Assembly: GCA_964017065.1 (NCBI GenBank)
Contig: OZ024785.1
Span: 11,921,086-11,985,085 of the forward strand
Direction of reading: 5' to 3'
Length of the DNA: 64,000 bases
Source of the DNA: Haliclona indistincta
Taxonomy: Eukaryota; Porifera; Demospongiae; Haplosclerida; Chalinidae
In this document: piece by piece, positions 13,380 through 55,489 of the stretch
Layout of the letters: each line of letters starts with the position of its first letter
How positions within the stretch are numbered: position 1 is the first letter of the stretch
Translations under genes and position numbers: made by a program
The notes under the pieces: model-generated
Told to the model about the DNA's origin: nothing
Database searches by the model: none
What the model saw: the letters and a program-made list of their open reading frames with translations, nothing else

Positions 13380-14060
13380 TTTGTACAGATACGTGGTAAA
13401 TTTGTCTGGATATTTTCCGTTTGCTGAAAGTTATCGCGAGCACTGTAGCTTTCCTCCTTGTCTTAGGCATAGTTATTCTCTTTCTTTTCGTCAGTTCCTG
13501 GGGGTTAACGGGTGTATCATCTTGTTGAAGTACTAAAGATTCTACAAGTACTTGACATGTCTTGATCACAGCTACGCAACTGTTATAAAGTAAATCATAG
13601 AAGTAGTCCACCCAATACCCTTTGCACATTACCTTAGCCTTTCCACCATGTGATTCAGCGTTTCAGTAGCAAGCACAACAGAACACGCGTGAAGGGGCGT
13701 GACAGAACGTAGACATTAGAATTTGCGGGAAAATATACGGTCAATATTATTGTCTATGTCCAATTATTCCGTGCTCACTAGTGTCAGGGGAGGCACCAGA
13801 TACCCTCCAATCGACCTCTGCTTTATAAAGAGTTTGATCAAAATCTGATAAATTATTGCTACTTAAGATTGTTTTGGCCATAAACGTACGCACCGGTTTT
13901 AACCAAGTACCTTGCAACATAACAGTGAGATTGTGATGCAGTAAAACCAATTTTAAGCCACTCCAATCAGTTAACTATCCGATTTTGGGCCTGAATTGAA
14001 TTGCCCAAAATCGGATTTGTTTATTGTGCAATTGTGTTGGTTTTCCCTGCTAGTTTACTC
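13380..14060. other. Non-coding stretch with a small palindrome
   Basis: No gene is recognisable. At 13979-14017 CCGATTTTGGGC and GCCCAAAATCGG form an inverted repeat of about 15 bp with a short loop, the only clear structure. Confidence 0.5.
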
Positions 14061-14089
14061 TTGACCTCTACTGTTACTATTACATATCC

Positions 14090-14929
14090 ATGTCTTGTTA
14101 CCTCCTGCAGCCTAATGCAATTTTCATATATTTTGGGCTGACAAAGTTTATATGGAAAATGTATCACGTGACAGCCAAATCAAGCATACTATACCTCAGC
14201 TCTCCTTTTCTTCGTCCGTTCAAGGCTGCAATTGACGACGACTTGACAAAAATAAAAACACTTGGACATAGAAAAACGAATAAGTGCTGTCATTCCTTCC
14301 GCAAGATTGGGAAATCATCTTCTGTAGATTTTTGGCTCTTCCGCCACGATCACTATATAAATTGTTCAGACTGTACATTCGATGACATAGACGGCACTGC
14401 ACAAGTTAGAATAAGGGATGTACCAATAGTTCCAAAATGCAGACAGAATGACCATGGAATGTTATTGTCATTCTACTATGACAATAAATCATTGCTACAA
14501 ATGTTTGAAGAAGATAGTTCCTTACCATTTTATTCTAACCAAATAAAAGTATTAAGGAAACTCTTGTCAAACTCTGCTTATGATCCAAGTTGCGATCTAA
14601 GTAACATATACTACACATCGGGGAGCCCGGACATGCTATCTGTTAGGTTTTCAGAGAATGTATGGACAAGGCGACTTTGCGGTGGTTTGCAAACTTTGCT
14701 GCCTGGTGTTGAAGTAAATTACACTGCAGAGGATGGCATGCAATTTGCTAATAAGCAGGAGTCAATTACGAAACTATCTGGCAACAGAATTCAGTGCTAT
14801 CTCTTTCATGGCGCGGCTGACATCACGATTAAGCAATCCGTAATTGTAGCTGACCTGTCCTATGATGAATACCACGTCATTGAGAACAAATTACAGCCTG
14901 ACAATCATGTCCTATATGAATTGTGTTAG
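14090..14929 (+). CDS. PD-(D/E)XK-like nuclease family protein, first family, C-terminally cut
   Basis: A 279-residue open frame. The C-terminal half is homologous to the fragment at 43323-43600 (FSENVWTRRLCGGLQTLLPG versus FCENTWSQRLCGGLNKIIPG) and to the spliced gene at 22143-24121. Near the end, FHGAADITI followed 17 residues later by VIENK matches the PD...(D/E)xK metal-binding pattern (GAPDL ... AELKNK in the 22143 gene); the Pro is replaced by Ala. The frame stops at 14929 before the Q-x-x-x-Y motif seen in the intact relative, unless a donor near the end joins a further exon. Residues about 70-130 contain a Cys/His pair cluster of unknown meaning. Intact frame, but domain probably truncated. 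Confidence 0.55.
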   Translation: MSCYLLQPNAIFIYFGLTKFIWKMYHVTAKSSILYLSSPFLRPFKAAIDDDLTKIKTLGHRKTNKCCHSFRKIGKSSSVDFWLFRHDHYINCSDCTFDDIDGTAQVRIRDVPIVPKCRQNDHGMLLSFYYDNKSLLQMFEEDSSLPFYSNQIKVLRKLLSNSAYDPSCDLSNIYYTSGSPDMLSVRFSENVWTRRLCGGLQTLLPGVEVNYTAEDGMQFANKQESITKLSGNRIQCYLFHGAADITIKQSVIVADLSYDEYHVIENKLQPDNHVLYELC

Positions 14930-16527: not shown

Positions 16528-18587
16528 ATGCCAAGGTGCAATAGATGTTTAGCCAAAATTATTTCTCTTTCATTAGATGACTTACGAAGTTCAACAATGT
16601 CGTATGAACATGTTTGGGCTGAAATCTTGAATGGACTGACGAATTGTAAGAAGTATGCCAGTAGCTTGAAATTTTTAAACCCTTCTTTGACAGAGGTAAG
16701 GCATAATAATAGTAAAGCGTACACCATTGAGAAACTGTATAGTTATGGTGTGTGCGATTGAGAAGCTGTGTAGGTACAGTGTGTGCAACTATCGCACTTA
16801 CGGTGTGTGCGATAGTTGAGGTGCAGCAAGAATTTCAATTGGCAATTCTCTGTTGATAGCATGCAATACAGTTTCTTTGGCAGCCAGTTGCATGCAATAA
16901 AACTGGTCAATTAGTAGCTGCATTAGCAATAAAAACTGGATTTAGCCATAACAAGCTTGAGAAAGTGCTAATGAGCTCAAGAGAGCATGCTTTGGTATGT
17001 TATGCTGGTATGTACTGGTATGCTCTGTTTAATGACTTTACTGTGGTGATCAATGTTTTCATCTTTTCAGATCAATGATGAACACTTTCTTGATATTATC
17101 AAGACAGAACAAAATACATCACTTATTATGTTTTGTCTTAGACAGTGGAAGTCTGAACACGAAAATGTTGAAATGCAAGTACAGGTTTTACATATCCCTA
17201 TGGATGAACGACATGTAATTTCAGCTAAATATGCTGACATTGAGAAGGTATTGCAAAATCTGGCATGTACATCAATACTCAGTTCATGCATCGCTATTGA
17301 GTGTGTGATAGCGATGCATCGCTATTGAGCTATTTACCGAGTGTGTGATTACACTCGGTAATGAACTCTTGGCTGAAATTAGACCTTTCTAAGCCACTTT
17401 ACAGACTAATGTGCCTAGAATGTGCCACACTCTTCAATGTTCAAACCCTAACAGTTATGATGTTCAATGTAGGTAGTACACATATTAAGAGATAAAGGGT
17501 TATACCCCAAGTGGGTGTGACTACGTTCAGCAAGCCTGACGCCTATTTTTGGCGGTTGGCACGCAGTGTTACTGCCCATTATTGCCACGCTCTCGATTGG
17601 CAAGATAGCAGAAAACTGCGTTATAGTGTAGCTTTCCGCCGGCTATAGTCTACTGCGGCGGAAAGCTAACATCAGGAGCTATGTATATAGTCATAGCGAA
17701 TAGTGAATAGTGTCACTGTCATTTTCTTGTATAGTCACAGTCATTTTCTTGTATAGGTTTGGACACTCTATTTATACTACTTCAGTGGTAGATTTTCATG
17801 TTGCAACGATTTTCATTCTACCCATTCAAATAACACTGAACTTCCACTACAAATAAGTGCAGAAACAGCTATTGTTACTAAAGGCAAACAGGGAGAATAT
17901 GTACGGGTATCTGATAATTTGGAAGATAAATGTGCTTTCTATGTGTTTAAATACTTTGGTAAAGTACCAGGACCAAATAATACACGGGTAAACAACCCTC
18001 AAGTAACGGCAGCCAACAAAGCCACGATGGATTGCTTTGGAATACCTATCACCATCCCGAGGGCAAACCTTGTGGTAAGTTTTAGTTAAGGTAGGAGAGG
18101 AGGTTAATTTTTGTCCATTTATTTTTAACTTAAACTTGATGTCCTGATAGACAATAGCATACACAGTACACCTAGAGCATTTTTGGTCCAATACAATGTA
18201 CTGTTTCGAATATATTTTCTCTAAAGATTTCTACCATCAGGCTGACAAGATTGGCTTCAGCACTTATTGCTGTTTTCTTTGTCATATTTTGGTGTAATGA
18301 ATAATGATCAAATTATTCATGAATATTATTTGTGGTTATTTGTCTATAAAAATAAATATCTTCAAATCAGGAAATTCATAATAACTATAATAGCAGTGTA
18401 TATACAAGAATAAGAAAAATAAATAACTCATTGATTACAGCAGTTCAGTTCAATAATGAGGCCACAACATTATCATCGATACCAGTTGAGTAAGAATGAC
18501 CTATATAGTGACATAGATATCATGTAATCAGCTTAGTAAATGTTTTACCTATTTTTAATTGTAGGTCTATCTGCTGCAAAGAACTGA
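16528..18587 (+). CDS. Orphan five-exon gene, 244 aa
   Basis: Exons 16528-16695, 17071-17247, 17757-18074, 18441-18489 and 18565-18587 join with GT-AG ends and consistent phases (three phase-0 junctions, then one phase-1) and no internal stop; total 735 nt. The protein begins MPRCNRCLAKIISLSLDDLR (a CxxC pair), continues through an amphipathic helix-rich segment (EHFLDIIKTEQNTSLIMFCL) and a long third exon with Cys/His residues (FSCCNDFHSTHS) and KGKQGEYVRVSDNLEDKC. Not recognised. The splice consistency is the main evidence; the last small exon could alternatively be read from 18565 in another phase, ending at about 18621. Confidence 0.6.
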
Positions 18588-18787
18588 GTGTCCAGTGGGT
18601 GACAAGCTTGCAATAGAATAGAATTATGTATATATATTTTTCACAAAAGTATGTAACAGCAAATCCTTTGTACACTGACAATATTGCAAACAGGTACTAA
18701 AAATGTTTTGCTGTGTTGTTCTATTGTAATGCATATGCAACTATTTACCATGAGTATTGTGGTAAGTTGCACATAATTATGAAATAA

Positions 18788-21144
18788 TTACTTACCTGTC
18801 TTACCTTTATTCATGGGACAGTCTCGATGGCTAGTACGAAGATGAGAAGTGGAACCACATTTGCATTTTTTTGTAGTAATTTCTTGCTCAGAGATTGTAG
18901 AGTCACCTTGTAAGTCTACACTGTCATCCTCATGCCTCTTACTCTTATTCATGGGACACTCTCTGTGACTAGTTCGTAAATGACTAGTAGATCCACACTT
19001 GCACTTCTTTTTACTAGCTATGATGACAGCTCTATCAGGCCCAGACACTGAGGAGCTGCCAAGAAGTTCTCTAGCACCTGCTGAGTCAACTTCAACATCA
19101 TCTTCACCATCCTCTTCTCCGTAGTCATGTCTGATTTCCTGTTGCTTAACCCATCGCTTCCTCTCTTCTTGCTCCAAGTCACGTGCATTCTTCCACTTGA
19201 TCCTCTTCTTCTTTGACTCCTCGCTCCTTAGCTTCTCTAGTTTCCTTTTCCTATCCTTGTTTGCCTGCTCCAGTGCTTCCTGCATGCCATCCAGTAGTGG
19301 TAGCTTGAGTCGATTGAACAGATCCAGCAGCCAGTGGTATCCTGTGCCCTTCTTACCTGTCAGGTAGGTCATGTTGCTATGACACAGCCCCAGATTGGTG
19401 GATGTGACATAATGTAGGCGATGGAGGTGGAGATCTTTAGATCTAAATCTTATCAGCACATTATGGGAGCCCTCACATAAGTTAGAGTGGCCCTTACCAA
19501 GCTCAAGGTGTATGACATTATGTGCCCGTGCTGCTCTAATATTACACTCTATCTCATAGGCTAGTGCATGTAGAGGGCAGGTGAGTGGGTTTTTAGTGGC
19601 ATACTCCCTACCTTCACACTCCACCTCATCCTCTTCACAACTACCACAAGTACACATCTTCTCACTGTGAAAATCACAGCTACCACCCTCCCAGTTGTGA
19701 ATGTTACGTGCATGATACTTACCAAGATCACAAAACCGTTTAGCAAAAGCATCAGGATCTTTTCCTGATTGCACGAGGCAACAAAAAAAATTAATGCGAG
19801 CCTGTCGCAGAAAGCCATCTGACATGCAACCACATCCCTGGCTATGATTACCACCTTCGCAACAACATTTTACTGTCTCTACCTCAGGAAAGCTCTCCTT
19901 ATGCTTGTTTATGTATCGCTTAGTGAAATACTTCTTTTGCGAAAGTTTTGTGAGTGCTTTCGTGTGACAACGACCGACATGACCAGCACAAAGCATGATA
20001 CGTGACTTGGCTTCGTCGGGATAGTGTTTACGAAAGGATGCTGATGAGGAGGAGTCAGCATCCTGCCACTGCACCTCTACATGCATACCATCATCCTTTG
20101 CCATACCAAAGGCTTCATCAGCAGCATATCCCTCAGCTGACTTAGCTGTACCCTTATACAAATCACCCTCTACTAAATCATCCTCTCCTCTCATACACTC
20201 ATGTACTACATACAACAGAGCACCAGTCATGTAGTTACGTATAGTGTATGTGTGATTCTTACTGAAGTGACCTCTTGTTAGCCAAGTACCATCGCCTGTT
20301 ACTATAGCACGCTGCATGCTACCTAATTCACCAGGTGGTAATGCTTCCATGTCGTCCATAGCCTCAGTGCACATCTCATCTATCATATCACTTACATGGG
20401 GGAACACAAGCTTGATCATTTCATAAAATGGTTTACATGTAACAGCCTGAACACCTAGTGACTGTTTCAGTATGCGGTAGTACTGTGCATGTGTACATCC
20501 TGAGGCATAGAATGCTACCTGTAGTGCAAGGCTGACTATTGTACGGCGAGATGATTCTATCATAGGGGAACTATCGAAAGTCAGTCTTCGTATCTTGCAA
20601 CCATTACAAGCAATCTCTATCTTCAACCCCCCACCCAGCCCCTCACACACTACCCTGACAGGAACATACACACCACTACACCCTGGGGTACGACATGCCA
20701 TGTTAGCATTGACCTGATCTAAAAATGCTGACACCTGTGAAGAGAGACACACAAACATTCTTCTACCCAGACAAGCAGGCTCAACTGGCTGTTGCATAAT
20801 GGCAACCCGCCGTCGCTTCTCAGGCGTGGGGAAATAGTCAGACTCACTGCTGGGAGGTACGGAATCACTTTCAAGCAGCAAATCACTTACCTCAGGTCCT
20901 ATGGTCACTGTATCATGAAGGTATTTTCAGCAGACTGTGAAGTATCATCCTTTAAGCCAGCAACATCTTGATAAGTTGTGCTCTGCAAAGACATGTCTCC
21001 TTTTGTAGCTGTTTTCTGTCGACCGTGAGTAGCGGACAGTTCTCCAGAGGAATTCCCAGTCCTTCTTTTTCCTTTTCCCAGTTGGCTCATCAGTCGCTTT
21101 TTGGCTGAGGAAAGCCGCTTGTCCTTTCGTGAGCATGAAAACAT
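18788..21144 (-). CDS. Mutator-like transposase with tandem C-terminal zinc knuckles
   Basis: The main open frame (20908 down to 18788) encodes 706 residues without an ATG of its own; coding starts upstream at ATG 21144 (MFSCSRKDKRLSSAKKRL) with a frame change near 20930, as shown by comparison with the copy at 45184-46116. Along the 706 residues: Cys-rich segment about 72-104, DDE core with GDGTW (Asp206), WQDADSSSS (Asp283/285) followed by CAGHVGRCH, a cysteine-rich insertion about 348-425, and LCEGSHNVLIRFRSK (probable Glu479). A Lys/Glu coiled coil (about 545-600) precedes two CKCGSTSHLRTSH...CPMNK knuckles near 634-655 and 680-701. The order fits Mutator-like (MULE-type) transposases. 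A GTAAGT follows the last codons, so a further exon is possible. Confidence 0.75.
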
Positions 21145-21418
21145 TTTTTAATGCAAATATAACTGAAGGGCAGCAAAATGATTCAAAATCACAGCGACTA
21201 AGCTTATGTAGCGAACAATAGCTTACACAAAATCAGCAGGCTGCTTACCACATCAACAACAGCTCAATTACAAGCTGATACAAAACCAGTCTAATAGGTA
21301 AAGCAATGCAACGAAGGGCGGAATGTTATTTTTATGTTGCGAAATTAGTAGAGCGCACGTGGTCATTCGTTCGGGCCACGCCCAACTAGATCGATCTCCA
21401 TTGTGCGCCATCGTGCTA

Positions 21419-22035
21419 TGTGTTCTCTTCTCCCAGTGGCCTAGCCTGGTGTGCTCTTCCTTGTTTCTCTTTAGTGCTACCTTGTAAGTTACCAAGCTTG
21501 TGTTCATTTCTCAGTGGATCGATCCATCTCTATCTTGTGTTAATCTCAGTCAGCGGCCTAGTGTGAAGTCTCCGAGTCATCCAATCGTATACCTAGTCAG
21601 TGTTCTCTTCTCCCAGCTGGTGTGCTCTTCCTTGTTTCTCTTTAGTGCTACCTTGTAAGTTACCAAGCTTGTGTTCATTTCTCAGTGGATCGATCCATCT
21701 CTATCTTGTGTTAATCTCAGTCAGCGGCCTAGTGTGAAGTCTCCGAGTCATCCAATCGTATACCTAGTCAGTGTTCTCTTCTCCCAGCTGGTGTGCTCTT
21801 CCTTGTTTCTCTTTAGTGCTACCTTGTAAGTTACCAAGCTTGTGTTCATTTCTCAGTGGATCGATCCATCTCTATCTTGTGTTAATCTCAGTCAGCGGCC
21901 TAGTGTGAAGTCTCCGAGTCATCCAATCGTATACCTAGTCAGTGTTCTCTTCTCCCAGCTGGTGTGCTCTTCCTTGTTTCTCTTTAGTGCTACCTTGTAA
22001 GTTACCAAGCTTGTGTTCATTTCTCAGTGGCCTGT
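21419..22035. repeat. 171-bp tandem repeat, about 3.5 copies
   Basis: Units begin GTGTTCTCTTCTCCCAG at 21419, 21600, 21771 and 21942. The first is 181 bp because of a 10-bp insertion (TGGCCTAGC); the others are 171 bp and almost identical, so the array is young. It contains GCTACCTTGTAAGTTACC in every unit and lies between the minus-strand transposase and the start of the 22143 gene. Confidence 0.95.
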
Positions 22036-22142
22036 TACATGCATGTGCTATATAGCTCTTCCTGGTGTACCGATCGAACTCTTGGGGATCTTCAGTGCTA
22101 TTTACCTTGTGATCTGTGGCCTAGTGTGCTCTTCTTGGTGAG

Positions 22143-24121
22143 ATGGCAGAAAATTACACCACCTCATCAGGAAGAGTCTCTAAGTCACCTGACTTTTACA
22201 TGTTGTCACCAGGTAAATTGAATTTTATTTGTGAGAATAATTTTTGTAACCCTTCTTATAGATATGCATGTACCAGGTAAAAAGATTTTTATTTCAGAGT
22301 TTGCAAGGTACAGTGGGAAATTGCAGTAACTATAAGGCTGTGTGTTATGTTCAGTGGTAACAATAATACTATCAGTAATATTATTTTATTACAGAAGCCT
22401 TATAAGTTAGCTTGGTAATAGTATATATAGTGCTTGCATGCACTTTAGCTAAACTGTACTGGTGCGTTATTGGCACAGGTTGCTTATAGGTACATACATG
22501 TCATTGACTTTTATTAGGTGCATCTCGCTTTTATATATATAGGCGCATATTTCCTTGCTGTGGAAATAATAGCTCATGCGCCTAATAACGTGCCAGTACG
22601 GTATTGCTTCTTACATTTGCTACATTATAGCTTTGCTAATTTTCTGGATTGGTACAATAACGGAGCGTTTATGGTTAAAGGAAACAATGAGGAGGTACAG
22701 AGAAGCTAATTGTCTTCTTGAATTCATTATCATGTAACTATAGAAAATTGATTTATCTGTTTCTATGGTTACTGATGGAATCGATGATCCGAATTGCGAC
22801 TCAATCGACTATGGATATGGCGGGTGGCTAAGGACAGGTTGCATTAACTGCATCAAGGCTTTACATACTAGTCAGCTTTTAAAACTAACAAGTGGGGTGG
22901 ATTGGGAGTCGATTAAAGAAGGCCAGCGTCCACTTTTTAGGGTAAGCATTGTGTCTTATGTAAACATGCATGTTCCAATGACCTACTCTATCCTTAATAG
23001 CCGGACAAATTCGCCGAATTGTGTAGCCAGGGGAGGGAAGCTGTGAATAATAACTTTAAAAATGGCTGGGCAAAAAACCTAGTGAGGTCGGTCATTGACT
23101 GCATAAGAACAACCAGTCTGTGTTCCGATCACCGCGACGCTGTTGGAGTGTATGTTGCTATAATACATTATGTGCACTGAGTTCCTTTTTTCTTTCAGCA
23201 ATATGCCTGGAGGTTCACTAGAGGGCGTCAGTGTCACAATAAAAGATGATAAAAAACAATTTTATGATCTTTCGGTAATCTCTATTATACTGATCTGTGG
23301 TAGCTAATTTACCACTATAATAATGCATTTTCAGGGTGCTCCTGATCTCATTGTAAATTTTCATTCCGAACATAGTGTAGTTGTTCTAACTGCTGAGGTG
23401 AGATTATAACTTGCTTCACATCACATTCTAAGCATAATTATATATCAGTTAAAGAACAAAGAAAAGAATGGCATCCTTAATGATGATATAGGTGACACTT
23501 GTATAGGACAGTTGTTTGGATATATAATTGGCAAAGTACTACAAGATGTAAAATCAAACATAGTTAGGTCAGTTCCTCTACTTGGGGTGTACATGGAGGA
23601 ATCAAAAGTAAGTATGGTGTTGTGTTTTCTTAATTGTTCTAATTTTGATAATGCATTAGGCAGTACTAGTAAAGAGTAACCTGATCAAGAAAAAAGATAC
23701 CTCGTACAAACTAAACATGATTATGACCCCTATGGGAGAGAGTGCAATTGAAGTATTCTCCATAAAAGGATGTAGAGCAATGCTGGAAATCATACATCGA
23801 TTTATTTGCTTGCACTCCATTGATCGAAGTTGGTTATAGCAAATTGATGTCGGTGCCTTTATTAGTCAAATTTTTTATAGATTCCCGAAGAAGAATGATC
23901 AGTAGTAGTGCCAGTAAGTGATAAGATATGCATCTTCTGTTGGGATTATATTGCTCATTATTTGCATGTTCAGTTGTCACTAGTTTGGATCTATACAGTG
24001 CTGGTTGTGCTATTTTTCTGTAAATTTTGTTATTCTATAATACTTTTTCTTTTCAGATACTGCCAAAAGACTAAAGTATGATGATGATGAAGCTTATGCA
24101 TTACAGAATAGCACACATTAA
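22143..24121 (+). CDS. PD-(D/E)XK (RecB/Cas4-type) nuclease-like protein, spliced, intact
   Basis: A likely first exon is 22143-22212 (MAENYTTSSGRVSKSPDF). The region 22213-22510 is unresolved; an exon ends at 22694. From there splice phases are fully consistent: 22744-22941, 23001-23149, 23199-23274, 23335-23397, 23449-23607, 23660-23828, 23881-23913, 24057-24121 (stop TAA). Nuclease motifs in order: GAPDLIV (metal-binding Asp, exon 23335), LTAE|LKNK (the E-x-K pair, split by an intron at 23397), and GQLFGY (the Q-x-x-x-Y helix motif of RecB-like enzymes). The N-terminal half is helical and unknown; the C-terminus is basic then acidic (KRLKYDDDE). It is the best-preserved member of the family also seen at 14090 and 43323. 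Target (DNA or RNA) and role are not known; a nuclear role is plausible from the KR-rich tail. The 23828 donor (GTTGGT) is weak. Confidence 0.68.
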
Positions 24122-26400
24122 TAATTATTACATTTTTTGCTCCATGGCTAAAGTAACTACATGCAGCTTACTGGTGTAGTATTCCGTCCTGCTCTTGGGT
24201 CATTCGTTTTTCCTCACAATCGCTGTCTGTCATGTATAATATATAATGGATTATGTCATTCGTGCATAGCAATAGTGATCTACTGCCCGTGTTCAGTGCC
24301 ATGTTGGCCTATGATGATTTACCATGTCTTAGTTGAAGATTATATTGCTGTAATAGAATTGATTCTATCTTGGACTGTTTACTCTTATTGATTTTATACT
24401 GTGACAGAATCCAGTGAATCAAGCAGCAGCAGCAGCAGCCGCAGCAGTCTTGTTCCTAAGCAATAACTAATTCTCTGAATACTTATTTTGTTTGTGTTTT
24501 ATAAAATTAATGCTACGTTAATTGTTTGTGTTTCTTAAATGCCGATAAGTTATTAATAAAATTAAATACTGATCTAATCTTTACTGTAGCCAGAGGAGAT
24601 GCACAAATCCAAACCAAAGTTGACATAGAATTACCACAAATCAATTGCTAGTTGACATAAAATACACCACAGCTCATTAGTATGTTGTAGGTTCAGAACA
24701 GAACAGGTAAAACGCAATTCCACAACAAAATGGCTATATTGTGGATGCTTTATTGGCACAATCTAAACAATTAACCTGTTACTACAATTCTATCGTTTTT
24801 GATTTTCAAATTTGCATAAAATTAAGCATCAAACTCAAAAGATAAATGATAGCGTTTATCAACAACAATAATATGGAAAGTTAAAATAATTGGAACTAAA
24901 AAAAAACAACACTCTTGTACCTAAATGTGATTTGTACTGCCTGTATTGATCCCACATGTATCACTGCAACAACTCTTGCGGAATTATATAAACTAATAAG
25001 TAAAATATGCATTTGTCCATTTCAAAACTTCACAACGGAAGGTCATAATTCGTTCAAACCTGCTTTGATTATTGCCCATCATTTTGTTTCTTGGATAAAA
25101 TTATTTGCAATTTTGGATAATTTTCCCAAAAAATAACCTCCCTTTCTACCTTAAAGTATCAACATTTACAATTACTATTACTATCTCTTCGATAACGCTT
25201 TGTCTGCATACAGATTATAGCCTACAACACATTCGAACCATCCACTAAGGTATCAAATTGATTAGGATATTCATCGTGTTGCATCCAGAGGTACACAAAA
25301 ATGGTCACTAGCGAGAACGTTTTTCCTGTGCAGTATCGGCCTACTCGGGCCTAGGCGCCGAAAAAGAAGCCTACATCACATAGATAAAGATGAGCAAGAA
25401 TAAGACAGCAACAATGTACACTAACAATAGCTCGTGTTTGCAGTAGAAGTACACAAGAGTTTGACAACTTTTAGCTCGCTAATGTATTGGGTTAAGCGCT
25501 ACGCGGAGTGAACACACCAAAATGTATTGTTACTATGCGCTCACGTGAGCTAGAGACCAATCCCAGTCTGAAGGCAATATAATATCTCGATATGATATCT
25601 ATGTTGTGTCTCTGTATTGAAGGTGTCATGTGTTGTGTGCGTCTCTCATCGGTTTGTCAAATGTACATCAAATGTAAACGTATCCTTGTTATTTTATGTG
25701 GGCATTGTGTTTGTGTGTGTGTGTCTCTGTAGAAAGCATCGTGTGTTGTGTGTGTCTCTATAGAAGACATCACGTGTCCGTAGAAAGCATCTTGTGTGTC
25801 TCTCTCCGTATGTTTCGATCTGCTTGGTGTGTGTGCGTCTCAACATGTAGTAAGTATTGTGTACGAATCCACCACAGCAACAGAAATTGTACGTAGCAGC
25901 GCGAATTTGGTGTAAACATAATAGGCGTGGTCAATTATTAGTGATAAATATTTATTATTTTTGTTCTATCTTACTGCCTTGCCAAGTCCTAATGCTACTG
26001 GTCACCTTGTGTCCTGGCCTTGTATCTTTGTTTAGTTTTTCTTAAGTAATATTCGCAGTGATATTTCCTCCCCCAATGGTTATATTCTGTGAATAAATGA
26101 ACATTAATTAGATGCCTCCCTACTGAATTTTGCTTCTGGCTAATGTGCTGATATTCTTAATTATAATGGATAATTTCATTGTGATTCATGCCCCTATCAC
26201 CACAATAAATGACTGTATCTGGATCTATGACAATTTCTTAATCATGAACATTAGTATTTTTTGCCTTTTTTTCCTGCTTGTATTTTTGCTGTGTTATTAC
26301 CCCTTAACTTTACTTGTTAATACTTACAGGTGCATATATGGAGTGCTTGTATGTAGTGTTGTTTATAATTGCTAGTATCTTGTATGGTTTATTTTTCTCA
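24122..26400. other. Gene-poor region
   Basis: Only short frames. A possible Ser-rich terminal exon at 24410-24466 (after a TGTGACAG acceptor, SSESSSSSSSRSS then stop) includes an AGC microsatellite. Around 25690-25830 there is a degenerate GTGTGTCT(C)TGTAGAAAGCATC repeat. No recognisable domain. Confidence 0.5.
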
Positions 26401-26406
26401 ATAGAT

Positions 26407-27127
26407 ATGGATGCTAGTTCGCAGCATTGTTCAGAAGAGTTAGATATGGCAGCTAGTTCGCAGCTCTTTTCACTCGCAAAGGCAAATAGTTCAAGTTGTT
26501 ACCAGTTATCAAATGCTTACAAGAAGTCATCAAATGCTTCAGTTAGGATGACTACGAATGCTACAATCCGTAGTAAGTCTGTTAGTTCCCCCCTCGATTG
26601 CTGGATTTTTTTGCTGTTGCACATTATGATGAAATAAATAACCGTTATACCTATGAGAACGTCGTGGGCAAAGTTATTGAGTATGATGACAAGAGTAAGC
26701 ATGACAATGTAAAAGCTAGTGTTCAAACTTGGTTGGAGAAAGAGTGTGCGTATAACGTTCATGTGAAAATCGATGGAAGAGTCAGCAAGAAAAGATTATT
26801 AGTTACTGACGAATGTCGCCTGGCATTTAACACCAATGACCCTGACAAAATTACTGATCTGGCAATCTATGGTTCAGGTAGTAGGGATTTGCCTTACCTT
26901 CAGTTGGAGGTGCAATCATCAACGAAGCCGGTTTCAGAGGGCACCAGCAAGAGCAAAAAACAAGCTATCGATGGTTCGAGAAAAAGTACTATTCGTAAAC
27001 TGGGTTACTCACTGGTTGATCAGTTAATTTTTTTACGCAATCGCGTCAGTCTTGCCAAACGCAATCGCGTGAATCATGTCAGCTTTGTTAGCTCCACCAA
27101 TAGGGATCATAGGTATAAACCAACGTA
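26407..27127 (+). pseudogene. PD-(D/E)XK-like protein, second family, frameshifted copy
   Basis: ATG at 26407 (MDASSQHCSEELDMAASSQL) opens a Ser-rich N-terminus; homology to the 54725 gene begins at SKSVSSPLD. The frame is lost in a run of seven T near 26606-26612 and continues one base off as FFAVAHYDEINNRYTYENVV. Conserved blocks follow: DKITDLAIYG (Asp), YLQLEVQSS (E-x-Q), IRKLGYSLVDQLIFLRNR. The copy ends early (stop 27125-27127), lacking the roughly 60 C-terminal residues of the 54725 gene, and has a 13-bp internal duplication (ACGCAATCGCGT) near 27035-27070. Confidence 0.6.
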
Positions 27128-27444
27128 ACACTCCCGGGCACACCACAATCCAACCATAACTACCACTTAGTATCTAAGACTATGTACATCTGTGTAATGA
27201 TCTGTTACAGTATCCACAAGCCTGTGGATCAGGCCAATGGTGTCAGATATGCAGCTTGGGCTGGTGACTGTAGACAATGAGACAATCGTTGACCATGAGA
27301 CTATATGTGGACTGTTTGTTTGTTCGTTTGTTTGTGCCATTGGGGGAGTGGCCCTTGCGAGACTACCAACCAGACCACCACTTTTCCTAATGGATTTGGG
27401 TGTAAAGTACGTCCAACTGATTGGCGTACCTTGATAACAATTAA

Positions 27445-43110: not shown

Positions 43111-43322
43111 CTCAACAGCTCAATTTCCTGGCCAGGACACAACAAATAACACACTAGATGAAAATCCTAAATGTCCACGATCCCAAGAAAGAGCTGAAAA
43201 CATACAAGCTAACACTCAATTTGTTCGGCAGGGCAAATAACACATAACACACTATTAACATACATCCTAAATGCCCACAATCCCAAGAAAGAGCGTAACA
43301 AACACAACACCACACACAACAT

Positions 43323-43600
43323 GTGTACTGTGTGAAGCATGGTCGCAAAGCATATTACGCCGACGGAACACCTGGTATGCCTGGTATAAACTTCTGTGAA
43401 AATACCTGGTCGCAAAGACTCTGTGGAGGTTTGAACAAAATAATACCTGGTTATCAAGCATCGCTCACTGCGAATGATGGATTAAAATTTGTAACAAAAC
43501 AACAAAGGGACACAGGTCTTCCCGTTGATTTGTGTGACTGTTATCTCTTTAGAGGTGCCCCAGACATAGCCTCGGCCCCACGCTCTCCACAGAGAGCCTG
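43323..43600 (+). pseudogene. PD-(D/E)XK-like first-family fragment
   Basis: The frame has no ATG and reads HGRKAYYADGTPGMPG, FCENTWSQRLCGGLNKIIPG and CDCYLFRGAPDIA. It matches residues around 185-255 of the 14090 frame and the GAPDL region of the 22143 gene. It is lost right after the PD motif, before the E-x-K strand. The RecQ helicase ATG follows 139 bp later. Confidence 0.55.
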
Positions 43601-43738
43601 GTACAAGTTGCACGCGCATGCGCTAATTATCTCTTGATTTTAACCGAATCACTATAATTAGTATATTTATAGTACACTTTAGGATATTTTCCGTATACGT
43701 TAACTTCTCGTCAACCTTAGTAATCTTAAACAGTCGAA

Positions 43739-45183: not shown

Positions 45184-46116
45184 CTATCTTGTTGGAGCCT
45201 CAGTGCCCATTTCCTCTAACATATCACTAACATGGGGAAACACTAACTTGATCATCTCATAAAATGGCTTGCACGTAACAGCCTGAACACCTAATGATTG
45301 CTTTAGAATGCGATAGTACTGAGCATGAGTACATCCTGAGGCATAAAATGCTATCTGTAGAGCTAGGCTGACTACTGTACGGCGAGATGATTCTACCATA
45401 GGAGAACTGTCAAAAGTCAGTCTTCGTATCTTACACCCATTACAAGCAATCTCTACCTTCAACCCTCCACCCAGCCCCTCACACACTACCCTGACTGGAA
45501 CATACACACCACTACACCCTGGGGTACGGCATGCCATGTTAGCGTTGACCTGGTCTAAAAATGCTGATACCTGTGAAGAAAGACACACAAACATTCCCCT
45601 ACCCAGAGAAGCAGCGTCAACTGGCTGTTGCATAATGGCAACGCGCTGTCGCTTCTCAGGTGTAGGGAAATACTCAGACTCACTGCTTGGAGGCACAGAA
45701 TCACTCTCAAGCAGCGACCCACCTACTTCTGGTCCCATAGTCGCAGTATAAAGGTATCTATCGGTAGAACGTGAAGCCTCCTCCTCCTCCGAGCCAGCGG
45801 TCGATGGCTGAGTTGTCTCCTGCAGCGACATGAATTGAGATTCTCCTGTTGTAGTCAAAGTTTCCTGTTGATCTCGATCGCGAGTTGAGGACTGTTCTCC
45901 AGAGATGTTCCCAACCCTTTTTTCCTTTTTCACAGTTGGCTCACCAATATTTTCTTTGCTGATGAAAGCCGCTTGTCCTTCTTTGAGCGAGAAAACATTT
46001 CTACTATCAACTTGTACTTGTGGTACTGGTAGCAAAAATTCAAACACGTGCACACATGCGCATTCAGACGTGCATGACATTCTCTGATATTCAAGCTTCA
46101 TCGATATAGCTGACAT
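45184..46116 (-). pseudogene. Truncated copy of the Mutator-like transposase
   Basis: A 310-codon minus-strand frame from ATG 46116. It gives the N-terminal third in one frame (FSLKEGQAAFISKENIGEPT, GPEVGGSLLESDSVPPSSES) and the Cys-rich segment, close to 90 percent identical by eye to 20908-20350. It is cut just before the first catalytic Asp (DMLEEMGTEA), so it cannot transpose itself. It reveals the true N-terminus of the family, which is frameshifted in the 18788 copy. Confidence 0.85.
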
Positions 46117-46274
46117 TCTCTTATCTGTGAGCTGTGGGCTAACCTACATACAGCATCGAGTACGCCGAGGAAGAGGTAAGTTAGCTGGCTCACTCGCTAT
46201 AGCATGTAAAGTAGTAGTCCGTCACTAGTACTGGTCTTCAATATATAATTATGCTGAGGTTGCTAAAATTATAG

Positions 46275-47104
46275 ATGGCAGAACCGAGGGCAGAACTGCC
46301 ACCTGCTATAAAGCGGTGCAGGCATGATGGATCTGATGTATCTGACGCTTTTTACAGCAGTGACAGCCTTAGCTCATTAGACGAGGCAGACAGTCCAAGC
46401 AGTAAGTATCGTACTCTCCAAGGCACTATCAGTGTATTTATATTTCTCAACACTAGTCTGGCCCAGTGGTACTTCATCTTTAGCCGCTTTTAAGGAGCTT
46501 GTCAAAGACAAGCTCCTTAAACCATCTCCTAGTGTAACAGTCAAAGTGAAGATAGTACCTTTTAGTACTAGTGACTGTCCCACTTCAAATTGTAAGCAGT
46601 GCAAGGATCTGCTGACTGAATCGGGTTTGTTACAGTCTATCAAGACTGTAAGGTGGCGTCTGCTGCAAACTTCCATGTATAATCTGACTACAGAGGTTTG
46701 TCAATCCTTATGCATTTTACATGTTTACTTATGATCATTTTGATTATTAGGACCCAAGACTGTTTCAGTTAATGACGGCAGTCTGTAGCACACTGAGATT
46801 TGGTTGCTATAATGGCCATGCGAAACAACTCTCCTCTACACTGGTTTACTTGTTGCGGACGTACACTTTGTGCTCTGAGCACAACCTTTCAATCAATGTG
46901 TAAGTATTCATGTTGTTTATTGTGCAGTGTACTGATTTTATTATGTGACACAGCTTCAACCCCTCCAGCAGCAACGAGGCTGGAGGAATCGTTGCTAAAA
47001 TTGGATTCGCTGATAGCATCACAGAGTTAACATGGTCAAGACTCAAGATTGTGAAATTGAACATTGTTAGCACAGAGTTTTTGTTCAAACACTATTTCTA
47101 CTAG
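46275..47104 (+). CDS. Orphan four-exon gene, 221 aa
   Basis: Exons 46275-46401, 46457-46695, 46751-46899 and 46954-47104 join with GT-AG introns of 49-55 bp and consistent phases (1, 0, 2) to a TAG; no internal stop. N-terminus acidic/Ser-rich (SDAFYSSDSLSSLDEADSPS), then WPSGTSSLAAFKELVKDKLL, a CxxC (NCKQCKDLLTESGL), then FQLMTAVCSTLRFGCYNGHA and IVAKIGFADSITELTWSRLK. Not recognised. It starts 159 bp from, and diverges from, the truncated transposase at 46116, so the two could share a promoter; it may be the accessory gene of that element family. Exon 2 has a duplicate 1.5 kb upstream. Confidence 0.65.
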
Positions 47105-54647: not shown

Positions 54648-54671
54648 ACCTCTGCTAGGAGCAGACGACTC
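54648..54671. repeat. 24-nt inverted copy of a segment of the downstream gene
   Basis: 54648-54671 is the exact reverse complement of 55197-55220, which lies in the E-x-E strand coding region of the next gene. It sits on the junction between the gypsy remnant and that gene. Confidence 0.85.
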
Positions 54672-54724
54672 CACCACCACCTGTTCTACGCAATAGTCAC
54701 CAATCTAAGCGGCGTTGTGTGTGG

Positions 54725-55489
54725 ATGAAGAACATGGAACACGACGATGATTTGGTCACTTTGGAGCATGTACAATTGAAGCGTAAAACGGATTCATCGA
54801 AGGGGTCAAATTTCAAACTTTTCCAAAAGTCCAGTTACGCCAGCGTCCAGCAGCCATCACCTAATGCCTCACAACGGAGCAAGTCAATTGTCGATAGTTT
54901 ATCACATGTGATAACATTCACCGTTGGTTTCTGTGATCAACCATGCCTTCCCTACGTCTTTAAAGATGTCCTTGGGTTTGTTCCGAACAGCACAGACCAC
55001 AACACTGTGCGGGATTCGGTGATCTACTGGTTGAAAAAGAAATTACTTCGCCAAAAAGCTAAGGGAAAATTTGCTGTGCTTGTTGGACGAGAATATACCC
55101 TCGAATTTCGAGAGGATACCCTGTGTGATTCATCCAAAGTTGCTGACATAGTGATTCGTGGAATGGGTGACATTGCATATGTTCAGTTCGAGGTAGAGTC
55201 GTCTGCTCCTAGCAGAGGTCACACATTGAGGAAGCTGGCGTACGGTTTAGTTGATCAACTCATTTATGCCAGGAATCGTCACAATACTGTTCAGTCAGTT
55301 TTTGGATTTTACATCTCTGTTCAAGGAGGTTTTGAAAAGCTGCATTGTAAATGGGTTGATGAGAAGTTTTGGTTTTTACTCGTGCCACACCAGCTTCAAT
55401 TGGCCGGTTGCCTTCAGCACAGCTTGTTTGATGATCCTACACCTGGCCAGTCAGATTGTCTACATGCACTGTTTTGGCTGAGACATTAA
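54725..55489 (+). CDS. PD-(D/E)XK-like protein, second family, intact single-exon gene
   Basis: ATG 54725 opens about 254 residues to a TAA at 55487-55489. Ser/Gln-rich N-terminus, then SKSIVDSLSHVITFTVGFCD, VFKDVLGFVPNSTDHNTVRD, SKVADIVIRG (Asp), YVQFEVESS (E-x-E where a canonical enzyme has E-x-K), LRKLAYGLVDQLIYARNRH and a hydrophobic C-terminal part (KFWFLLVPHQLQLAGCLQHS). The D ... E-x-(E/Q) spacing of about 14 residues and a following Lys/helix are consistent with a PD-(D/E)XK fold; the missing Lys leaves catalysis in doubt. Homologous to the broken copy at 26407. It is 90 bp from the truncated gypsy RT, so its promoter may be element-derived. Confidence 0.55.
   Translation: MKNMEHDDDLVTLEHVQLKRKTDSSKGSNFKLFQKSSYASVQQPSPNASQRSKSIVDSLSHVITFTVGFCDQPCLPYVFKDVLGFVPNSTDHNTVRDSVIYWLKKKLLRQKAKGKFAVLVGREYTLEFREDTLCDSSKVADIVIRGMGDIAYVQFEVESSAPSRGHTLRKLAYGLVDQLIYARNRHNTVQSVFGFYISVQGGFEKLHCKWVDEKFWFLLVPHQLQLAGCLQHSLFDDPTPGQSDCLHALFWLRH

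What the first reader, a model, noticed from the sequence alone, without database searches (positions are those of the whole stretch)
22143..24121. Intact spliced gene with a complete PD-(D/E)XK nuclease signature
Seen: GAPDLIV, an intron-split AE|LKNK and GQLFGY occur in that order across exons with consistent phases. Known: PD...(D/E)xK...Q-x-x-x-Y is the RecB/Cas4/lambda-exonuclease signature. Inferred: an active nuclear nuclease of a family I cannot name, with two degraded relatives in the same window (14090, 43323). Kinase-like and RecQ sequences lie near the relatives. Fusions of such nucleases to kinase or NTPase domains are known in Crinkler-type (CR) eukaryotic effectors, so an effector or element origin is worth testing.
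Basis: partly seen in the sequence, partly recalled or inferred. Interest (0 to 1): 0.78.

Follow-up and report, generated by a model that had tools for sequence, protein, structure and literature searches.

The report
Spliced nuclease gene inside a transposon
The gene is the second gene of a recently moved "jumping gene" (a Kolobok-type DNA transposon); it probably makes a DNA-cutting enzyme, and its sequence has diverged far more than the transposase beside it, which hints that the two halves of these elements have separate histories.

Summary
The exons and the motif order PD...ExK...GQLxxY are real. The gene is neither free-standing nor a Crinkler-type effector: it is the accessory gene of a 7.07-kb TTAA-flanked DNA transposon (18086-25154) with 28-nt inverted ends and a 712-aa Kolobok-type DDE transposase on the other strand. 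Three copies differ by at most 0.42% per region. Of ten end-paired loci with this transposase that I examined, nine, in five lineages, carry the nuclease-like gene; the tenth has only a weak remnant. Across the five lineages (24-36% identical to the window copy) P, D, E, K, Q and Y of the motif are invariant, as is an upstream C-x2-C...C-x2-H, and core introns match. Silent sites are saturated while the protein is constrained, so it has been selected. Kolobok elements with PD-D/ExK nucleases are in print (KolobokE); this one differs in layout and zinc finger. The odd part: transposase dS is only 0.24-0.36 between lineages whose nucleases are saturated. Likely role, inferred: processing DNA ends for homologous repair.

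The parts
18086..25154 (.). Whole transposon including the TTAA target duplication on both sides (18086-18089, 25151-25154); ends read GG...CC inside TTAA
   Evidence: 99% identity to copy A stops at these borders, TTAA on both sides in W and A
18086..18113 (+). Left terminal inverted repeat (with TTAA)
   Evidence: 28 nt, 86% complementary to 25127-25154
25127..25154 (-). Right terminal inverted repeat (with TTAA)
   Evidence: end pattern found at 40 places in the genome against 1 for the reversed control
18788..20926 (-). Kolobok-type DDE transposase, 712-aa open frame; its N-terminal start is unclear compared with P0001
   Evidence: 150 homologues at E<=0.001; invariant D211, D288, C312xxH315, E484 in 35 sequences; model and structural matches
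21420..22030 (.). Tandem repeat of about 171-bp units between the two genes; copy A has one unit fewer, copy B three
   Evidence: self-comparison; gaps of 171 and 513 bases
22143..22276 (+). Exon 1 of the nuclease-like gene (ATG 22143); least certain exon
22631..22694 (+). Exon 2 (less certain)
   Evidence: a similar stretch in the 8.01 lineage
22744..22941 (+). Exon 3, with C99-x2-C102
23001..23149 (+). Exon 4, with C173-x2-H176
23199..23274 (+). Exon 5
23335..23397 (+). Exon 6: P210-D211 (23341-23346) and E228 (23395-23397)
23449..23607 (+). Exon 7: K230 (23452-23454), IGQL 247-250 (23503-23514), Y253 (23521-23523)
23660..23839 (+). Exon 8 with stop TAG; in the 8.01 lineage this exon is split by one more intron
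45184..46143 (-). N-terminal part of a sister element's transposase (truncated)
   Evidence: 89% to residues 1-189 of the window transposase; 82% DNA identity 20360-21146 to 45196-46000
46275..47050 (+). 5' exons of a sister element's nuclease gene, core lost
   Evidence: aligns with residues 4-206 of the 9.45-lineage protein, score 458

Best explanation
The gene is the accessory (second) gene of a TTAA-targeting, cut-and-paste transposon of the Kolobok superfamily. The transposase excises and inserts the element (inferred from its DDE/CxxH signature, predicted fold, TTAA duplication and 99% copies). The second protein is probably a metal-dependent PD-(D/E)XK DNase: D211, E228 and K230 as metal and catalytic site, Q249/Y253 as the helix seen in RecB/lambda-exonuclease types (recalled motif), with an upstream, probably zinc-binding C-x2-C...C-x2-H part that may bind DNA or a partner. 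Proposed work (inferred, not shown): it trims or resects the DNA ends left at donor or target site and so steers repair to homologous copying, which keeps or raises copy number. My odds by step: accessory gene of the element 0.95; PD-(D/E)XK nuclease 0.75; end-resection role 0.4.
For: Element borders, TTAA duplication and 3 young copies. End pattern 40 against 1 control. Nuclease-like gene in 9 of 10 examined end-paired loci with this transposase, five lineages, and in one-ended copy B. P210, D211, E228, K230, Q249, Y253 invariant in 5 of 5 lineages. Saturated silent sites with constrained protein in 10 of 10 pairs. Core intron positions shared, and matching insertions in P0121. Other Kolobok lineages carry RecQ helicase, DEDDh, PD-D/ExK or His-Me nucleases (PMC9587614).
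Against: No known-family profile matches beyond noise; lambda exonuclease shows no similarity. The fold was not predicted. One of ten loci (C3:11.02) has only a weak remnant of the gene. Decayed copies have PN for PD (L005/L016, L018) or lack exon 6. No expression, splicing or activity data. No clean empty site was found.
Confidence: 0.7

Rival explanations
1. The protein is an accessory DNA-binding or end-pairing factor: the nuclease fold is kept for binding or site choice, not for cutting.
For: No profile of a known active nuclease matches; a conserved C-x2-C...C-x2-H part could bind DNA. Other two-gene transposons have DNA-binding second proteins (PMC4482050).
Against: The charged catalytic residues D, E and K are themselves invariant in 5 of 5 lineages, which binding alone would not require.
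Confidence: 0.15
2. The nuclease acts against rival DNA (other copies, host or competing elements) or as a homing-type cutter, rather than in its own element's repair.
For: KolobokP carries a homing-type nuclease with a proposed recombination role (PMC9587614). The right flank of copy A also abuts 9.45-type right ends at two other loci.
Against: No target site, no immunity partner and no long direct repeats as in KolobokP were seen. The shared-flank case has other readings.
Confidence: 0.1
3. A Crinkler-type effector or a captured host gene that merely rides in the element.
For: Effectors joining such nuclease domains to kinase or NTPase domains exist (PMC5289972, passages), and unrelated kinase-like and nuclease-like sequences lie nearby in the window.
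Against: The gene lies between the element's ends in five lineages, and Pfam finds no kinase, NTPase or header domain in it.
Confidence: 0.03

Closest known systems
KolobokE (PMC9587614)
   Same: Kolobok superfamily element with a PD-D/ExK-type nuclease
   [quoted passage not shown] here a separate multi-exon gene, divergent or upstream on the same strand, no CCHC finger, no detectable similarity to lambda exonuclease
KolobokP / KolobokD / KolobokH (PMC9587614)
   Same: Kolobok elements with an extra DNA-processing enzyme; in KolobokP the nuclease is on the complementary strand
   Different: His-Me nuclease, DEDDh exonuclease and RecQ helicase are unrelated enzymes; no long terminal direct repeats here
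Kol0 group with KolX (PMC9587614)
   Same: Two proteins per element
   Different: KolX has a cytoplasmic-ballast fold with seven conserved Cys; here four conserved C/H residues and a nuclease motif
ISL2EU (PMC4482050)
   Same: DNA transposon with a second ORF for an exonuclease-domain (YqaJ) protein
   Different: AT target duplication and another transposase type; no YqaJ hit for the gene here
Crinkler (CR) effectors (PMC5289972)
   Different: Ubl or other header plus NTPase or kinase domains are absent here

Membership tests
Kolobok superfamily | TTAA target duplication | tested here: met
   TTAA on both sides of W and A
Kolobok superfamily | Termini 5'-RR ... YY-3' | tested here: met
   GG...CC directly inside TTAA
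Kolobok superfamily | DDE transposase with C/DxxH between second D and E | tested here: met
   D211, D288, C312xxH315, E484 invariant in 35 sequences; catalytic-fold placement in the model
[quoted passage not shown]
   Separate gene: divergent in three lineages, upstream on the same strand in two
KolobokE | CCHC finger downstream of the first catalytic D | tested here: not met
   By reading, one Cys between D211 and D288 in the window transposase (sequence, numbering)
KolobokP | Long terminal direct repeats | tested here: not met
   No direct repeat joins the two ends in the self-comparison
PD-(D/E)XK nuclease superfamily | Motif D ... ExK with Q...Y helix | tested here: met
   Invariant in 5 of 5 lineages; the motif itself is recalled
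PD-(D/E)XK nuclease superfamily | Profile similarity to a known member family | tested here: not met
   Pfam, NCBIfam, PADLOC, PDB: none beyond noise; weak phrog_36882 of unknown function; lambda exonuclease none
PD-(D/E)XK nuclease superfamily | Restriction-endonuclease-like fold | not testable with these tools
PD-(D/E)XK nuclease superfamily | Metal-dependent DNA cleavage | not testable with these tools
   Needs the bench
Crinkler (CR) effectors | Header plus NTPase or kinase joined to the nuclease | tested here: not met
   No such domain by Pfam in the 340-aa model or its relatives
ISL2EU | AT target duplication and YqaJ second ORF | tested here: not met
   TTAA duplication; no YqaJ hit

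The most novel reading that the evidence does not exclude
These transposons are two-part mosaics: a recently spread left half (left end plus transposase) sits on an old, highly diversified right half (a new C-x2-C/C-x2-H plus PD-(D/E)XK nuclease gene and right end), in both gene orientations. The nuclease itself may drive the exchange, by making or resecting breaks that are repaired from other copies, so that the accessory gene would be a recombination engine for its own element.
Probability: 0.25. Interest if true: 0.75.

Novelty: new variant of a known kind. Interest (0 to 1): 0.5.

Why it matters
Accessory nucleases, helicases and homing enzymes recur in Kolobok elements (PMC9587614), and PMC4482050 says the role of the extra ORFs in the transposons it studied is unknown. 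Here are very young copies with an intact accessory gene, five lineages in one genome, and a measurable mismatch in divergence between the two genes, so the question 'what is the second gene for?' becomes testable by sequence comparison and a transposition assay. The protein family had no match in the family libraries searched (one weak phage-family hit of unknown function).

Tried and rejected
Protein database: the partial spliced gene gave none of 382 candidates; the three-lineage profile gave one hit among 3631 candidates, P0121. Scans of viral and prokaryotic genome contigs: 66 and 78 pattern matches, none a relative. PDB profile hits (NMDA receptor, kinesin, heat shock protein) are noise. 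The Mutator profile PF20700 does not list the window's own transposase at E<=1, nor does Pfam name it, so the Kolobok call rests on TTAA, termini, signature and relatives. A co-oriented transposase near L016 and L019 was rejected as an ancestral layout: decayed pieces that differ between the two loci. Free reassortment of halves is not shown: transposase and nuclease trees share the deepest split ({W, 8.01} against the rest, support 99 and 100) and disagree only inside the second group (11.21+6.36 at 95, against 11.21+9.45 at 98). Empty sites: none found for A or W. Paper searches; in the lists shown I saw no Kolobok with this gene layout or divergence mismatch; I can say no more of its absence from print.

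Readings weighed and dropped: toxin or effector (inside the element, no partner), composite with long terminal repeats (none), captured host gene (repeated association). Positive selection on the nuclease cannot by itself explain saturated silent sites beside a transposase at dS 0.3. Unusual nucleotide-level constraint on the transposase is possible, but the left non-coding end is also 79-92% identical in 200-base bins.

Papers: PMC9587614, parts 1-2 of 6 of the text and passages; PMC4482050 and PMC5289972, passages only; all others, search listings and starts of abstracts only. The RecB/Cas4/lambda-exonuclease motif is recalled.

Full report
What is there. My model has eight exons, 22143-23839, 340 aa. 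The core reads G-x-PD ... AE|LKNK ... IGQLFGY, with a phase-0 intron between E and L.

It is a transposon gene. A search of the window's own genome (144 Mb, 46 contigs) found three near-identical copies of the core. The identity covers window 18086-25158 in copy A (C3, 13.60 Mb) and 18674-25154 in copy B (C4, 6.17 Mb; left end lost) and stops abruptly. The ends carry TTAA and a 28-nt inverted repeat, 86% complementary; the flanks of the copies differ. Substitutions between copies are 0-0.42% per region, with a few indels and a varying 171-bp repeat, so the insertions are young. A pattern for the ends, up to 3 mismatches, finds 40 places in the genome against 1 for the reversed control pattern.

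The second gene across lineages. Ten end-paired loci that I examined contain this transposase: W, A, C1:9.45, C4:9.01, C3:11.21, C3:14.05, C3:11.63, C4:8.01, C4:6.36 and C3:11.02; copy B has one end. In nine of the ten, and in B, the nuclease-like gene is present with its core; in C3:11.02 only a weak fragment remains (E 1.5e-4). The nine form five lineages. In W, 8.01/11.63 and 11.21/14.05 the gene is divergent from the transposase; in 9.45/9.01 and 6.36 it is on the same strand, upstream. Core exon joins coincide, including E|xK; the 8.01 lineage has one more intron, and the N-terminal exons of 6.36 are poorly resolved. The only database relative, P0121 (E 6e-28), covers the part before the core and has insertions at two of the same joins. 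The five proteins have 29 invariant of 248 ungapped columns, among them C99, C102, C173, H176, P210, D211, E228, K230, I247-L250 and Y253. Two further fragments (L012, L043) keep the core; decayed ones have PN for PD (L005/L016, L018) or lack that exon.

Is it a nuclease? The motif and its conservation say PD-(D/E)XK; known-family profiles do not, save a weak match of unknown function that begins at E228 (phrog_36882, E 0.0048). The fold could not be run here. I put it at 0.75.

Two genes, two histories. Between the five lineages the transposase has dS 0.24-0.36 and dN 0.03-0.06 in 10 of 10 pairs. The nuclease has pS 0.75-0.85, at or above the mean of shuffled codons, in 10 of 10 pairs, while pN (0.33-0.57) lies well under the shuffled 0.72-0.73. 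So the protein has been under long selection and its silent sites are randomised, yet it sits beside a transposase at dS 0.3. DNA identity of W to 8.01 and 11.21 falls from about 0.9 to about 0.7 from window 20800 on and to 0.5-0.57 beyond 21200, around the transposase N-terminus. Faster protein evolution does not do this to silent sites; a shared or exchanged left half would. Against free exchange: both trees hold the same deepest split, and one inner node conflicts (95 against 98).

How it may work. Cut-and-paste by the transposase; the second protein probably processes DNA ends. Other Kolobok lineages carry RecQ, DEDDh exonuclease, PD-D/ExK or His-Me nucleases (PMC9587614). I infer a common need: directing repair of the donor or new site to homologous copying. 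This step is not shown.

Known or new. [quoted passage not shown] So: a new variant of a known kind, with an accessory family that the libraries searched do not hold.

Noticed in passing
G000 C3 and C4, mainly C3:10.8-14.3 Mb and C4:3.8-9.4 Mb: Hits of the nuclease family crowd on two contigs: 24 of 24, 29 of 29 and 38 of 40 on C3 or C4 (overlapping lists, lower bounds), as do 34 of 40 element ends, while PF20700 hits spread over C1-C9.
   Followed up: no
G000 C3:13754742, C3:13810023 (L044, L046), against copy A: The right flank of copy A (99%) also follows the TTAA of 9.45-type right ends at two other loci, so two element lineages abut the same flank; the left flank recurs at C3:13776760 followed by other sequence. 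Unexplained.
   Followed up: partly
window 26586-27128 (+) and 54659-55489 (+): Two ORFs share a DI-x-I ... (F/L)EV-x-S ... RKL-x-Y-x-LVDQL pattern, another nuclease-like family unrelated by eye to this gene.
   Followed up: no
window 14054-14929 (+) and 43299-43637 (+): A second nuclease-like family; related to each other and to places on C6, C1 and C4 (10 matches in the genome), not to the gene of the finding.
   Followed up: partly
G000 C4:6360100-6377800 (L031, L029, L030): The 6.36 element lies inside an exon of another nuclease copy: the pieces for residues 225-264 and 261-333 flank it.
   Followed up: partly
G000 C3:13497528-13557015: Nine minus-strand decayed core copies in a row, some 5064 bases apart, look like a tandem array.
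   Followed up: no
G000 C4:12704895-12705989 and C8:1150226-1151339 (L034, L035): About 1.1-kb stretches with paired ends and no transposase or nuclease match: probable non-autonomous derivatives.
   Followed up: no
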